A stretch of 64,000 nucleotides of DNA from Deltaproteobacteria bacterium (GTDB lineage Bacteria; Desulfobacterota; Dissulfuribacteria; Dissulfuribacterales; DYLC01): positions 1 through 64,000 of the forward strand of contig JAQVIJ010000002.1 of assembly GCA_028695735.1 (NCBI GenBank). The letters run 5' to 3'. A model generated the notes under the pieces. The model saw nothing but the letters and a program-made list of their open reading frames with translations. It was not told where the DNA came from and did no database searches. Each line of letters starts with the position of its first letter. Position 1 is the stretch's first letter. Positions 14,175-18,061 of the stretch are shown here, piece by piece. A program made the translations under genes and the position numbers.

Positions 14175-14957
14175 TCAAACGGCACATTTCAGCATGGAGT
14201 AGTCCATGTCCGGATGAATGCCGAAGCGAGTGAGGCAAAAGTCATAACGCACAGGGTCTTGGGGTGAAATGCGTCTGAACGCCTCTGTGACCTCCAGGGC
14301 TGCCTTCAAGTCCGCCTGTTTTCTGTGTGTCAGGCCGAGTCCTCTGGCGATTCGATGCATGTGTGTGTCCATGGGTACCACCAGTTTGGAGGCCGGTATC
14401 CGCCAACCGCCGGGGTCCACTGCATCACAACGGACCATCCATCTCAAGAACAGAAATGCCCGTTTGCAGGCGCTGCCGTTTTCAGGGCTGGGGAGCAGAA
14501 AATGCCCTGAACAGTCCGCCTGTTTCCAAACAAGCCTTACAAAACGAGAGAGTGTGGGCACTAAATCGGGGTCATTTGCATCGTGCAATGCCATGAAAGC
14601 CTCCTCGATGGAGCCATACTCCTGAATCACCTTTTTGATGCCGAATAACATGGCCGCCAGGTCATCGCCAGTGGTGAACCTGTGTTTAAATCCGCTGAAA
14701 ACGGCCTTGAAATCCAGGTAGTCCATAGCCAAGAGGTCATCGTGGGGCATTGGGATGTATTGGAGCACGCCTTCAACACTTTTTAATATCTGATTTACAC
14801 GGCCATAGGCCAGGGACGAGGCGATTAAGCCCACTATCTCCCTGTCCAATGGATTTGAATAGCGATAGAGAAACTCCAGGGGATCCGGGTGCACGAATTC
14901 GCGTCTATTATAGCTGCAATAGAGCCCTTCCAGGTACTCTTTCAGGTCAATCTGCAT
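14175..14957 (-). CDS. TIGR02757 family protein
   Basis: This 260-aa protein matches the TIGR02757 (DUF2400) family over its full length. Recognisable parts are the FVHPDPLEFLYRYSNPLDRE start, SSLAYGRV, FLRWMVR and the C-terminal LVVPMDTHMHRIARGLGLT segment. The family carries a helix-hairpin-helix-like fold related to DNA glycosylases, but its biochemical role is not established. It ends an operon of five minus-strand genes and lies 7 nt after the DUF166 gene. Confidence 0.85.
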   Translation of the reverse strand: MQIDLKEYLEGLYCSYNRREFVHPDPLEFLYRYSNPLDREIVGLIASSLAYGRVNQILKSVEGVLQYIPMPHDDLLAMDYLDFKAVFSGFKHRFTTGDDLAAMLFGIKKVIQEYGSIEEAFMALHDANDPDLVPTLSRFVRLVWKQADCSGHFLLPSPENGSACKRAFLFLRWMVRCDAVDPGGWRIPASKLVVPMDTHMHRIARGLGLTHRKQADLKAALEVTEAFRRISPQDPVRYDFCLTRFGIHPDMDYSMLKCAV

Positions 14958-14964
14958 CGTTATA

Positions 14965-15597
14965 TTAAACCGAACCTTGAGTTATGGCCTTTTTCAACGC
15001 CACCCAGTGCACATCCCCTGCAAAGTGTACCTGGCTTTTACCTGTAATGGGGTCAAAGGCAGACGGATTTGCCACACAACAGAACTGCGCCTCCCTGCCC
15101 ATGGCCTCCAGTGCTTTCTCCACAGGCATACCCACTAACTTCTTGGCTGCAAACCAGGTAGCGCCGCAGGGCGCACCCCTTTTTACGCGAAGTTCCTTTA
15201 TGATGCCGTTTTCAAGGCAGACCTCGAACTCCGGCAACCCGAACTGCTCTCCATAACGGCCTGCAGCGGCCAGTCTGCCCATGGCGCAGCAGGTAAACGG
15301 CGTGATGGCGCCTGGAATGTGCTGGCCAGGAGCGATGACCGGAATCCCTTTTTTATTCGCTGTCTGAACGATGTGGCAGGCTATATCCGGCTGCCTTACA
15401 AAGGTCAGAATAAGGTCGCATGGCCCTATATCGGGCACATATTCCCCAGGTTCCTCTATGAATTCGGGCAGGGATGCCGGCAGGTCATGCACCTCCTGAA
15501 TCTCAATGCCGTTTCCGTAGGCCTCTATGCCGCCTACTTTGAAATCAGCATTTCCGCCCTGCTGAAAGAGGATGAGTCTAAAGGGTGGCCGCTGCAT
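14965..15597 (-). CDS. DUF166 domain protein
   Basis: This 210-aa protein fits the DUF166 family, found mainly in methanogens and in some anaerobic bacteria. It has the LILFQQGG start, CDLILTFVRQPDIA and the GKKG-like IPVIAPGQH segment. It also carries three Cys-containing motifs, TPFTCCAMG, GAPCGATWFAA and QFCCVANPS, that could hold a metal or Fe-S cluster. The function is unknown. It overlaps the 3' end of the FolE2/MptA gene by 20 nt, so co-expression is nearly certain. Confidence 0.8.
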   Translation of the reverse strand: MQRPPFRLILFQQGGNADFKVGGIEAYGNGIEIQEVHDLPASLPEFIEEPGEYVPDIGPCDLILTFVRQPDIACHIVQTANKKGIPVIAPGQHIPGAITPFTCCAMGRLAAAGRYGEQFGLPEFEVCLENGIIKELRVKRGAPCGATWFAAKKLVGMPVEKALEAMGREAQFCCVANPSAFDPITGKSQVHFAGDVHWVALKKAITQGSV

Positions 15598-16432
15598 TCG
15601 TGAGCGCCTTGAGGGTGGTGTCTATGCGGCACACCACGTCGTGAATGTGAATGCTCTCCAGGCTGACAGAGGCGATTTGCAAGCGAGTGTCATCAGGAAG
15701 CCTCTTGCCGAACCGCGCAGCCACGCTGCGGGCGGTCTCTCTCACGGCATCCTCTGCAAACTGCGGCATTCTATGGGCCTTGAGCACCAGTTCCGCTTCG
15801 TCAGGCCGTTTTAACAGGTCTTGAGTGAGATGCAGGGCGTCATTCAGACAGGACAGCAGGTCTTCATAGGTGAGGAGCATCGAGGCATCTTCAATGGTAA
15901 GGCTCGTGGAGGAGCGCTGAGAGTGAGTGATGAGCGGCAGATCTGACTGTTTCTCTTTGAAAAGCAGGTGGTTATAGACCTGTGTGCATGGACATGCAGT
16001 GATGTGCATGACCTCTATGCCCCTCATGGCCTCTTTGATTTGAATCTCGTCATTGTTTCTCATCAGACTGACGGAGGCCGTGACGGTGAGACTGTCGTGC
16101 GAAGGCCGTTTGGAAATCAGTGTGGAACGTGTGATGGGAAGCAGGCCCCTCAACCTCACATGTGCATCGTTTCCCCGCTGGCCCTGCAACAGCTTTTTTG
16201 CAAGGGCCATGGCATACTCCATCAGATCAGTAAAATCTATGGAAGACAGGCCGGAGACCGCCTCCTCCATGCGAGACATGTGTATGCCCCTGAACTGTGC
16301 AGGCAGGCTTACGGACAAGGCTGCATCAAAGGGGATGCGGCCCTCAGGCAATCGAATCCATACGGTCTTGGATGCGATGCCCACCTCTGTGAGGCCAATG
16401 GGAAACCCGGGTCTTTCCTCCGGCACATCCAT
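15578..16432 (-). CDS. GTP cyclohydrolase, FolE2/MptA family
   Basis: This 284-aa protein matches GTP cyclohydrolase of the FolE2 (type IB)/MptA group. It has the DVPEERPGFPIGLTEVGI start, RGIHMSR, ITACPCTQ with the metal-binding Cys, LLKRPDEAELVLKAH, PDDTRLQIASVSLESIHIHD and a catalytic-type His pair. The HITACPC and LPDDT segments are closer to archaeal MptA, which makes a cyclic phosphate of dihydroneopterin, than to typical bacterial FolE2, which makes dihydroneopterin triphosphate. The product therefore needs testing. The start at 16432 fits family length. An ATG at 16525 (315 aa, AAGGA upstream) would add 31 residues and overlap the glycosyltransferase gene by 58 nt. Confidence 0.85.
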   Translation of the reverse strand: MDVPEERPGFPIGLTEVGIASKTVWIRLPEGRIPFDAALSVSLPAQFRGIHMSRMEEAVSGLSSIDFTDLMEYAMALAKKLLQGQRGNDAHVRLRGLLPITRSTLISKRPSHDSLTVTASVSLMRNNDEIQIKEAMRGIEVMHITACPCTQVYNHLLFKEKQSDLPLITHSQRSSTSLTIEDASMLLTYEDLLSCLNDALHLTQDLLKRPDEAELVLKAHRMPQFAEDAVRETARSVAARFGKRLPDDTRLQIASVSLESIHIHDVVCRIDTTLKALTNAAATL

Positions 16433-16467
16433 CCCCTGTTCCAGTACCTGTTTGTGTTGCAGCGCTT

Positions 16468-17310
16468 CTATGAGGGGCTTTGCAGCTGTTTCATGGCGCA
16501 AAACCAGTCCTGTACCGTGTTCCATTTGCTGTGTTCCTTTTTTGCAAGTGATATGGCATTGTCTAAGTATAAAAAATCCTCGGGCATGGCGCCTCCTGAA
16601 CAGGCTGCAAAGGCCTTGATGTCCGTGAGCAGGTCGAGGATGGCGGCGCCCTGACCGCAAGTGCAGGAGAGGCTGCCCTTGTGCAGCCTTCTGTGTGTAA
16701 TGACCTCGTTTGCAAATCCAAAATGTTCCGGCTGTCCTGCAGGATGTTTGATATGACAAATGGCGTGAGCGAGTTCAAGGAAGAAATACCAGTCTTCTCC
16801 AAACGAGCGTTCAGGAAAGCCACTGCATTTGAAAAAGGCCTCTCTGTTGACTGCTATGCTTGAGGGCACGAGAAAACACCAGCGCAACAGGTCGCGAAAT
16901 GTGGAACCAGTGGCTGAAGCCGTGTCTTCTGGAATGTAAAAGGTCTCGCCAGTCAATTCATTTTCGTTCATCGTGATTCCATAGGCAAAGACATGGCCCT
17001 TTTGCATCAGGGAGGCCAGGGATCGGGTATGATTCGGCAGCCAGCGGTCGTCCGAGTCCAAAAACATGAAGACATCGCCTCCTGCACCGGCTGCACCGAG
17101 ATTTCTGGCTGCGCCTGGTCCTTTGCCTGAGGTCTTCAGGTATTTTACTGTGGGGAATCGAGTGGTTACCACCTCTTCAGTGGAATCCGTGGAGCCGTCG
17201 TCCACCACAAGGATCTCCGATACCGCCGTCTCCTGCCTCAGGGCGCTCTCTATGGCGCAGACCACCAGGTCACAGCGGTCTTTTGTGGGAATGATACAGC
17301 TGATTTTCAT
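16468..17310 (-). CDS. Family 2 glycosyltransferase
   Basis: This 280-aa GT-A enzyme has the start MKISCIIPTKDRCDLV, the nucleotide-sugar site ILVVDDGSTDST, GAARNLG, and the metal-binding FLDSDDRW (DxD-like). A likely base lies in FGEDWYFFLEL (ED). There is no membrane segment, so it acts in the cytoplasm on an unknown acceptor. The start at 17310 is one nt after the PP-loop gene stop; a start at 17352 would overlap that gene by 41 nt. A glycosyltransferase is an odd partner for cyclohydrolase and PP-loop genes. It could glycosylate a pterin or modified base, or be unrelated. Confidence 0.85.
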   Translation of the reverse strand: MKISCIIPTKDRCDLVVCAIESALRQETAVSEILVVDDGSTDSTEEVVTTRFPTVKYLKTSGKGPGAARNLGAAGAGGDVFMFLDSDDRWLPNHTRSLASLMQKGHVFAYGITMNENELTGETFYIPEDTASATGSTFRDLLRWCFLVPSSIAVNREAFFKCSGFPERSFGEDWYFFLELAHAICHIKHPAGQPEHFGFANEVITHRRLHKGSLSCTCGQGAAILDLLTDIKAFAACSGGAMPEDFLYLDNAISLAKKEHSKWNTVQDWFCAMKQLQSPS

Positions 17311-17311
17311 A

Positions 17312-18061
17312 TCAGATGGAGGGTCTTCCTGGTGGAAAACACCGGGCTGCATCCTTTATGCGGCCTGCCAGCTTGTGCTCGATATACTCCTCTACCCTCG
17401 AAAACATGTCGTCCAGATATGCGCCGATCTCCGCCTCTGTGGCAGTGGTCTTGGTCTGGCAAAAGAGGCATTTTCTCTCACCCCCGCCTGTGGAGGGCAG
17501 GCCATAGTCCTCCAGAAGGTGTCTGGCCGTGTCCTTGGCATCCAACTCCTCATAGAGCGGAAAGAGGGTGTTGATGCCAAATCGTTTTGAAAAGGCCTGA
17601 AGTTTTGTCATGAATGTCTGTGTCTGTTCGGGATAAAAGCCCTGTTTTTGTGTATAGCCCACATACAAAAAGGCGATGTTATGCTCGATACAGTAGTGAA
17701 TCGCCTTTGCATGCATGCCCAATTTGCAGGCCACACACACCAGATTTTTGTTGCCATAGCGGGGCATCAGGTCTTCATAGTGGTCCAGCCAAAGGCCTTG
17801 AAAGAGCCGGCCCATGTCCAATTCCACATAAATGGTCTCTGGTGAGGGGGTTGTGCCACAAGACGCTGTCAAGATGCGCTTGGCCACCTCAAGCCTGCGC
17901 TGAGGAAAGTCGTGAAACCGGCTCATGCCGTTTAGCATGTGCAGGAGGTGAATGTTGACGACACGGGGTGTGTCCAGGAGCTTTCCGCTCATGGCCAGGG
18001 CATAGAGGGCCAGGGAGTCCGTGCCGCCAGAATAGAGGATTGCAATGTCGTGCTGTTGCAT
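17312..18061 (-). CDS. PP-loop ATP pyrophosphatase-type protein
   Basis: This protein of about 249 aa begins with HDIAILYSGGTDSLAL, the SGGxDS PP-loop that binds ATP and adenylates a substrate in QueC, TtuA and related enzymes. It has two Cys pairs, CVAC near residue 110 and CLFC near residue 203, suited to Zn or an Fe-S cluster. Family members make tRNA-modifying nucleobases or thiolate them, but I cannot assign the subfamily. It is the first gene of the minus-strand operon. Starts at 18061 and 18085 are both possible; neither has a strong ribosome site. The 156-nt spacer to leuC holds divergent promoters. Confidence 0.75.
   Translation of the reverse strand: MQQHDIAILYSGGTDSLALYALAMSGKLLDTPRVVNIHLLHMLNGMSRFHDFPQRRLEVAKRILTASCGTTPSPETIYVELDMGRLFQGLWLDHYEDLMPRYGNKNLVCVACKLGMHAKAIHYCIEHNIAFLYVGYTQKQGFYPEQTQTFMTKLQAFSKRFGINTLFPLYEELDAKDTARHLLEDYGLPSTGGGERKCLFCQTKTTATEAEIGAYLDDMFSRVEEYIEHKLAGRIKDAARCFPPGRPSI

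What the first reader, a model, noticed from the sequence alone, without database searches (positions are those of the whole stretch)
14175..18061. Operon linking an MptA-like cyclohydrolase, PP-loop enzyme, glycosyltransferase, DUF166 and TIGR02757
Closely packed minus-strand genes combine a pterin-type cyclohydrolase close to archaeal MptA, a PP-loop ATP pyrophosphatase with two Cys pairs, a GT2 glycosyltransferase and two families of unknown function, one shared with methanogens. The mix suggests a modified pterin, a tRNA or DNA base, or a glycosylated cofactor pathway not yet described.
Basis: partly seen in the sequence, partly recalled or inferred. Interest (0 to 1): 0.65.

Follow-up and report, generated by a model that had tools for sequence, protein, structure and literature searches.

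The report
Thioguanine-type enzyme paired with pterin operon
A small, repeatedly conserved gene cluster in sulfur-cycling bacteria pairs a relative of the enzyme that puts sulfur on guanine with a second, unusual pterin-forming enzyme, a reductase and a sugar-transferase, which suggests that these bacteria make an undescribed sulfur-modified pterin.

Summary
The genes are real and tightly packed. The conserved core, however, is not the five-gene set described. DfsP (DUF166) is linked to the cyclohydrolase in 8 of 30 order genomes holding both; DUF2400 is a bystander. The PP-loop enzyme's nearest solved relative is YcfA, the 6-thioguanine enzyme (Foldseek 1.9e-14, Z 28.8; deposited with GTP). 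Five plasmid homologues were found; the four opened lie in 6-thioguanine-type operons. Three cysteines, not aligned with Cys in the 6-thioguanine enzymes, are invariant in 87 of 87 sequences. The cyclohydrolase is a second copy beside a canonical FolE2 and passes neither the MptA nor the FolE2 cut-off. Best reading: a thiolating PP-loop enzyme works with a dedicated cyclohydrolase, reductase and glycosyltransferase to make a glycosylated sulfur-substituted pterin. The chemistry is inferred; nothing was assayed.

The parts
17312..18061 (-). PP-loop ATP pyrophosphatase of the YcfA/TgsB (6-thioguanine) superfamily, with three invariant Cys (C109, C112, C198) and a fourth (C201) that varies; proposed thiolase
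16468..17310 (-). GT2 glycosyltransferase with intact FLDSDD and GED motifs; adjacent in most relatives, missing in some
15578..16525 (-). MptA-like member of the FolE2/MptA cyclohydrolase family; second copy beside a canonical FolE2 elsewhere in the genome
14965..15597 (-). DfsP (DUF166 (seleno)protein), Cys form; accessory, linked to the cyclohydrolase in 8 of 30 order genomes
14175..14957 (-). DUF2400/TIGR02757 protein; co-directional but not conserved with the cluster, probable bystander

Best explanation
The window holds most of a dedicated biosynthetic pathway for a sulfur-substituted, glycosylated pterin. Proposed order: (1) the PP-loop enzyme adenylates the pyrimidinone carbonyl of GTP (guanine O6) and replaces it with sulfur, as inferred for its relatives YcfA/TgsB, but taking the sulfur through a [4Fe-4S] cluster held by three Cys instead of through a PLP cysteine desulfurase encoded next door; (2) the MptA-like cyclohydrolase converts the thio-GTP (or GTP, if thiolation comes later) to a dihydropterin; (3) the unlinked RibD_C-type reductase reduces the pterin ring or its side chain; (4) the GT2 enzyme adds a sugar. 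DfsP may help deliver sulfur or assemble the cluster. Shown here: conserved gene set, co-occurrence, homology, invariant residues, duplicate cyclohydrolase. Inferred: every reaction, the cluster, the order of steps and the product.
For: PP-loop closest to YcfA of Erwinia amylovora: phmmer 3.8e-9, profile 4.4e-12, Foldseek 1.9e-14, VIA Z 28.8 over 220 residues at 1.7 A, the next protein (ThiI, 4-thiouridine synthetase) Z 15.4; PDB titles show YcfA with ATP and with GTP. In 72,556 plasmids there are 5 matches; 4 of the 5 were opened and all have NUDIX, HAD and DMT/EamA genes beside them. Shared residues K113, H117, Y123, G135, Q140, E145, Q146, S190, E195. C109, C112 and C198 in 87 of 87 distinct sequences, C201 in 75 of 87: a three-Cys set as recalled for [4Fe-4S] thiolases, whose structures (NcsA, TtuA, LarE-[4Fe-4S]) are among the hits. 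RibD_C gene directly upstream in 74 of 78 eligible loci; cyclohydrolase in 59 of 80 loci and GT2 in 52 of 80, many cut by contig ends. Co-occurrence in 46 order genomes: PP-loop with RibD_C-like 32 both, 1 and 0 alone, 13 neither; PP-loop with MptA-like cyclohydrolase 32, 1, 2, 11. The genome also has a canonical FolE2 (C5:289085-289831, E 1.6e-95), 24% identical to the operon enzyme in the stretch that aligns, so the operon copy is probably not the housekeeping one.
Against: No activity of any member was measured here. PP-loop enzymes that do not thiolate are also structural matches (ArtA nitrile synthetase Z 13.3, QueC Z 13.2, argininosuccinate synthase Z about 12). YcfA's reaction is known to me only from PDB titles and from passages of PMC7994395, which say that the 6-TG enzymology was then unconfirmed. 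The substrate could be a pterin rather than GTP. GT2 is absent beside PP-loop and cyclohydrolase in 9 loci, so glycosylation is optional. In this genome the reductase is unlinked. 10 loci with over 6 kb on both sides have no cyclohydrolase nearby. Relatedness of genomes inflates the co-occurrence statistics.
Confidence: 0.45

Rival explanations
1. A modified but unsulfurated pterin: the PP-loop enzyme activates a carbonyl or carboxyl of the pterin for attack by ammonia or an amine (amide, amidine or nitrile formation, like QueC or ArtA), and the rest of the pathway is as above.
For: QueC, ArtA, NAD synthetase and GMP synthase folds are among the matches; cyclohydrolase + PP-loop resembles the start and end of 7-deazaguanine synthesis (recalled).
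Against: YcfA is by far the closest relative (Z 28.8 against 13.3 and 13.2), and the next protein, ThiI, is a thiolase; three invariant Cys fit sulfur chemistry better; no QueD/QueE-like gene stood out among recurrent neighbours (read by eye).
Confidence: 0.2
2. A tRNA or DNA base modification pathway.
For: Many PP-loop thiolases act on tRNA; FolE2-type enzymes feed queuosine (recalled).
Against: No tRNA- or DNA-modifying partner stood out among recurrent neighbours of 80 loci (read by eye; a CCA-adding-type nucleotidyltransferase lies downstream in 21 of them); the closest relatives act on free nucleotide (YcfA-GTP entry); a canonical FolE2 is present in the genome.
Confidence: 0.1
3. Secreted 6-thioguanine-like antimetabolite, as in Erwinia and staphylococci.
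For: Homology of the PP-loop enzyme.
Against: No NUDIX, HAD or exporter gene in the window cluster and none stood out among recurrent same-strand neighbours (read by eye, not searched by family), unlike the plasmid operons; the cyclohydrolase would consume the purine.
Confidence: 0.08
4. No joint pathway: an ordinary cyclohydrolase duplicate, a GT2 and a PP-loop protein that merely travel together.
For: Gene order is scrambled in some genomes (G195, G395, G228).
Against: Near-perfect co-occurrence even when unlinked (G000, G395, G195); losses hit the genes together: G384 (reductase frameshifted, PP-loop truncated) and G417 (fragments of reductase and cyclohydrolase).
Confidence: 0.07

Closest known systems
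YcfA (Erwinia amylovora) / TgsB (Staphylococcus chromogenes), 6-thioguanine biosynthesis
   Same: Same PP-loop fold over nearly the full length, same ATP motif (S/T)GGxDS, shared residues K113, H117, Q140, E145-Q146, S190, E195; PDB entries of YcfA with GTP.
   Different: About 22-25% identity; three invariant Cys not matched in them; partners are cyclohydrolase, RibD_C reductase and GT2 instead of NUDIX, HAD, PLP enzyme and exporter.
MptA (TIGR00294) and FolE2 (NF010200) GTP cyclohydrolases
   Same: Same family (PF02649); CPC, HxQR and ESIHxH motifs kept.
   Different: Below both curated cut-offs (152 of 220; 112 of 215 bits); second copy in a genome with a canonical FolE2.
Archaeal/RibD_C pyrimidine reductases (TIGR01508, PDB 2azn) and Rv2671
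   Same: RibD_C domain, E 7e-22 in one relative; closest solved structure 2azn, profile E 9.6e-25.
   Different: Below the TIGR01508 cut-off (72 of 186 bits); tied to the PP-loop gene; a separate RibD is in the genome.
[4Fe-4S] PP-loop thiolases NcsA, TtuA, LarE-[4Fe-4S]
   Same: PP-loop core plus a CxxC and a third Cys.
   Different: No sequence-level match; fold match much weaker than to YcfA (VIA Z about 11-13).
DfsP, NF041372 (DUF166 (seleno)protein)
   Same: Over the curated cut-off; invariant CC, C144, C174, H191, H197.
   Different: Cys where many relatives carry selenocysteine; here beside a cyclohydrolase.

Membership tests
YcfA/TgsB 6-thioguanine PP-loop enzymes | Sequence and fold similarity over most of the length | tested here: met
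   4.4e-12; Foldseek 1.9e-14; VIA Z 28.8, 1.7 A, 220 residues; plasmid hits to 9e-12
YcfA/TgsB 6-thioguanine PP-loop enzymes | Operon with NUDIX, HAD, exporter (and PLP enzyme) | tested here: not met
   Absent from the window cluster; not among recurrent same-strand neighbours in 80 loci, read by eye; present in the 4 plasmid operons opened
[4Fe-4S]-dependent PP-loop thiolases | Three conserved Cys for the cluster | tested here: met
   C109, C112, C198 in 87 of 87; C201 in 75 of 87. That three Cys mark the class is recalled; their spatial equivalence was not tested
[4Fe-4S]-dependent PP-loop thiolases | Bound [4Fe-4S] cluster and sulfur transfer | not testable with these tools
   Needs protein
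MptA (TIGR00294) | Score over the curated cut-off | tested here: not met
   152 bits, cut-off 220
FolE2 (NF010200) | Score over the curated cut-off | tested here: not met
   111.6 bits, cut-off 215
GCHY-1 (PF02649) superfamily | Domain over the cut-off and motifs CPC, HxQR, ESIHxH kept | tested here: met
   156.7 bits, cut-off 25; alignment to solved FolE2; that these hold the metal ligands is recalled
RibD_C (PF01872), for the unlinked partner | Domain over the cut-off | tested here: met
   Two relatives scanned: 78.6 and 67.5 bits, cut-off 24.1; the G000 copy was found with profile A3 (E 2.1e-74) and was not scanned itself
DfsP (NF041372) | Score over the curated cut-off | tested here: met
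   226.8 bits, cut-off 200
IscU/NifU_N (for the C-terminal half of DfsP) | Homology by profile or fold | tested here: inconclusive
   hhalign prob 25%, P 7.6e-4; ISCU2 Z 7.1-7.5 over 88-102 residues, within background
TIGR02757/DUF2400 | Score over the curated cut-off | tested here: met
   193.9 bits, cut-off 139.2

The most novel reading that the evidence does not exclude
Sulfur-metabolising Deltaproteobacteria-type bacteria make a previously unknown thio-pterin (for example a glycosylated 4-thio-tetrahydropterin), built from 6-thio-GTP by a cyclohydrolase that accepts the thio-nucleotide, possibly as a new redox or metal-binding cofactor; in lineages where DfsP carries selenocysteine, sulfur (or selenium) delivery may be selenium-dependent.
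Probability: 0.35. Interest if true: 0.85.

Novelty: new variant of a known kind. Interest (0 to 1): 0.62.

Why it matters
If right, chemistry linked so far only to an antimetabolite (6-thioguanine) is used inside a pterin pathway, giving a sulfur-substituted pterin and a branch point between purine thiolation and pterin synthesis. It gives a concrete, testable substrate and product for a PP-loop family with no Pfam or NCBIfam name, for a cyclohydrolase clade that is neither MptA nor FolE2 by cut-off, and for a RibD_C reductase clade, in bacteria of sulfidic habitats.

Tried and rejected
DUF2400 as a pathway member: rejected, none in 80 loci, near DUF166 in 1 of 40. Housekeeping role of the operon cyclohydrolase: rejected as the simplest reading, since a canonical FolE2 is present in G000; no GCH-I over the cut-off in 46 order genomes. 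In-frame TAG reported for PP-loop genes of genus g12: not pursued; the alignments show no gap at the stop. Phage origin: no match in 50,697 phage records. DfsP fold: only weak matches; IscU likeness kept as a hint. Control comparisons of other pairs gave P 0.49, 0.094, 0.09, 0.0056 and 0.35, so one control comes within tenfold of the DfsP-IscU value. Distant PP-loop hits in G182 and G189 form another clade with ECLQC and a further VQC; no family name. Papers: no hit for thiopterin nor for the term sets; the set gave 5 unrelated listings. Promoter scan uninformative (2 found, 3.7 expected); terminator-like sites 9 against 4.6 expected, none used. The PADLOC scan failed on a wrong frame and was not repeated.
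Full report
WHAT IS THERE. Five minus-strand genes lie at 14175-18061 as described, with overlaps of 58 and 20 nt and gaps of 1 and 7 nt: PP-loop protein (249 aa), GT2 glycosyltransferase, an MptA/FolE2-family cyclohydrolase, DUF166 (NCBIfam calls it DfsP, 226.8 bits against a cut-off of 200) and DUF2400/TIGR02757. Upstream, divergently, lies a leuC-type gene. The window is C5:1-64000 of a 2.2 Mb genome in 9 contigs.

WHICH GENES BELONG TOGETHER. The PP-loop protein was found in 33 of 46 genomes of the same order (one of them, G384, a truncated copy). Of the 30 of these loci returned with about 1.5 kb of flank, 25 have the GT2 gene next door and 24 show the cyclohydrolase. A scan of 84,980 species genomes found 94 relatives by two short peptide patterns, of which the best 80 were returned; the patterns are specific to this clade, so distant relatives would be missed. 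Record titles are mostly Deltaproteobacteria, Desulfobulbaceae, Desulfurivibrio or similar. In these 80 loci the cyclohydrolase is present in 59 and GT2 in 52 (many loci are cut by contig ends); 9 loci have the cyclohydrolase close behind the PP-loop gene without an adjacent GT2; 10 loci with over 6 kb on both sides have no cyclohydrolase in reach. Clustering of all ORFs showed a constant neighbour that the window lacks: a RibD_C-type reductase of about 215 aa, same strand, directly upstream of the PP-loop gene in 74 of the 78 loci that have at least 800 nt of upstream sequence. The window's own genome carries this reductase unlinked, at C9:155103-155744 (E 2.1e-74), separate from its RibD; the other member of its family, G395, also has it on another contig than the PP-loop gene.

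CO-OCCURRENCE. In the 46 order genomes, PP-loop and reductase: 32 both, 1 PP-loop only (G398, a 66% complete genome whose PP-loop gene begins 114 bases from a contig start), 0 reductase only, 13 neither. PP-loop and MptA-like cyclohydrolase: 32, 1 (G384), 2 (G411 and G414, whose contigs begin inside the GT2 gene), 11 (presence was read by me, counting as reductase only hits with E below 1e-50 and as MptA-like only the divergent PF02649 hits, E about 1e-40 to 1e-49; short fragments in G412, G416 and G417 were counted as absent). Fisher p values of 1.4e-10 and 6.6e-8 overstate the case because the genomes are related. In one genus (g12) the operon is whole in G421, spread out or split over contigs in G419 and G420, and decaying in G384 (reductase frameshifted, first two thirds of the PP-loop gene gone) and G417 (fragments): the pathway is dispensable. 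Over the phylum, 22 of 395 genomes match the PP-loop profile, 20 of them strongly.

THE CYCLOHYDROLASE IS A SECOND COPY. No genome of the order has GCH-I (PF01227) over its cut-off (0 of 46). A canonical FolE2 (E about 1e-95) is in most, including G000 at C5:289085-289831, 24% identical to the operon enzyme in the stretch that aligns. The operon enzyme scores 152 bits with the MptA model (cut-off 220) and 112 with FolE2 (cut-off 215), so it is nearer MptA but is filed under neither. CPC, HxQR and ESIHxH are kept. A FolP-like gene (named by eye) lies about 4 kb from the unlinked reductase, so an ordinary folate route is likely.

WHAT THE PP-LOOP ENZYME RESEMBLES. No Pfam match even at E 10, and only chance-level NCBIfam ones (E 0.16 and 0.2). 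Against solved structures the clear relative is YcfA of Erwinia amylovora, deposited with ATP and with GTP: phmmer 3.8e-9, profile 4.4e-12, Foldseek 1.9e-14 with the predicted model (pLDDT 85.8), VIA-align Z 28.8, 1.7 A, 220 residues, the next protein being the 4-thiouridine synthetase ThiI at Z 15.4. YcfA and YcfB are reported as necessary and sufficient for 6-thioguanine (passages of PMC7994395). A search of 72,556 plasmids gave five matches only; four were opened, and all lie in 6-thioguanine-type operons with NUDIX, HAD and DMT/EamA genes, in S. chromogenes, S. epidermidis, Alicyclobacillus and Vibrio. The alignment shares the ATP motif and K113, H117, Y123, C124, G135, Q140, E145, Q146, S190, E195. 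What the present clade adds is cysteines: C109, C112 and C198 in 87 of 87 distinct sequences, C201 in 75 of 87 (Ser 11, Gly 1). Three fixed Cys and one variable one match, from memory, the three-Cys [4Fe-4S] site of NcsA, TtuA and LarE-[4Fe-4S], which also appear among the structural matches; spatial equivalence was not tested. A further related clade (G182, G189) keeps the CxxC and carries a further VQC. The window cluster has no cysteine desulfurase gene, unlike the staphylococcal operons; use of sulfide, plentiful in such bacteria, would explain that (inference).

DfsP. In 24 of the places listed the gene has one in-frame TGA; in all 10 such copies read it falls at the residue equal to C103 of the window protein. 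Within the order no TGA is seen. DfsP is in 42 of 46 order genomes, with or without the pathway, so it is not specific to it. It is linked to the MptA-like cyclohydrolase on the same strand in 8 of the 30 order genomes that hold both, from six families: adjacent in G000, G395, G101, G228, G423; about 1.2-1.3 kb away in G411 and G413; 4.3 kb in G181 (coordinates). An iron-dependent alcohol dehydrogenase (named by eye) lies between in G413. This is more than expected in 2 Mb genomes but could be inherited gene order. Its model (pLDDT 94) has a Rossmann-like half and a C-terminal half with weak likeness to IscU: Foldseek E 0.027 for A. fulgidus IscU, hhalign P 7.6e-4, probability 25%. This is a hint, not a finding. 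DUF166 is listed as a selenoprotein family in two reviews (PMC9312934, PMC13188914; passages seen).

HOW IT PROBABLY WORKS. Thiolation of GTP or a pterin by the PP-loop enzyme, ring rearrangement by the operon cyclohydrolase, reduction by the RibD_C enzyme (a fold that includes Rv2671, recalled to act as a dihydrofolate reductase), glycosylation by GT2. I hold this at 0.45; the weakest points are the identity of the acceptor and the order. The main rival is the same pathway with another nucleophile in place of sulfur.

NOVELTY. The parts belong to known superfamilies; the combination and its product were not found in print in the held library (searches; no preprints held). I rate it a new variant of a known kind (pterin biosynthesis with a thioguanine-type enzyme).

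Noticed in passing
DfsP loci; 10 read (L051, L054, L055, L057, L058, L060, L062, L063, L065, L066): Selenocysteine (in-frame TGA) in DfsP always falls on the first Cys of the conserved CC motif (residue 103 of the window protein).
   Followed up: yes
window 14965-15597 (C-terminal half of DfsP): Weak fold and profile likeness of the DUF166 C-terminal half to the IscU/NifU_N scaffold; not proven.
   Followed up: partly
G000 (whole genome): No NifU_N/IscU (PF01592) match in the window's genome although 55 of 59 phylum genomes have one.
   Followed up: no
L227 (G384), L228 (G417): Decaying remnants of the operon in one genus while close relatives keep it: the pathway is dispensable.
   Followed up: partly
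L281:4050-4961, L282:3934-4764: Another unnamed PP-loop clade with ECLQC and a further VQC, related to YcfA and to the window protein.
   Followed up: partly
L037, L040-L044: In these relatives DfsP is followed by 2-oxoacid:ferredoxin oxidoreductase-like genes (named by eye from translations).
   Followed up: no
L215:6685-9750 (Vibrio coralliilyticus plasmid): A 6-thioguanine-like operon with a fused NUDIX-HAD protein, DUF6024 and an EamA transporter.
   Followed up: no
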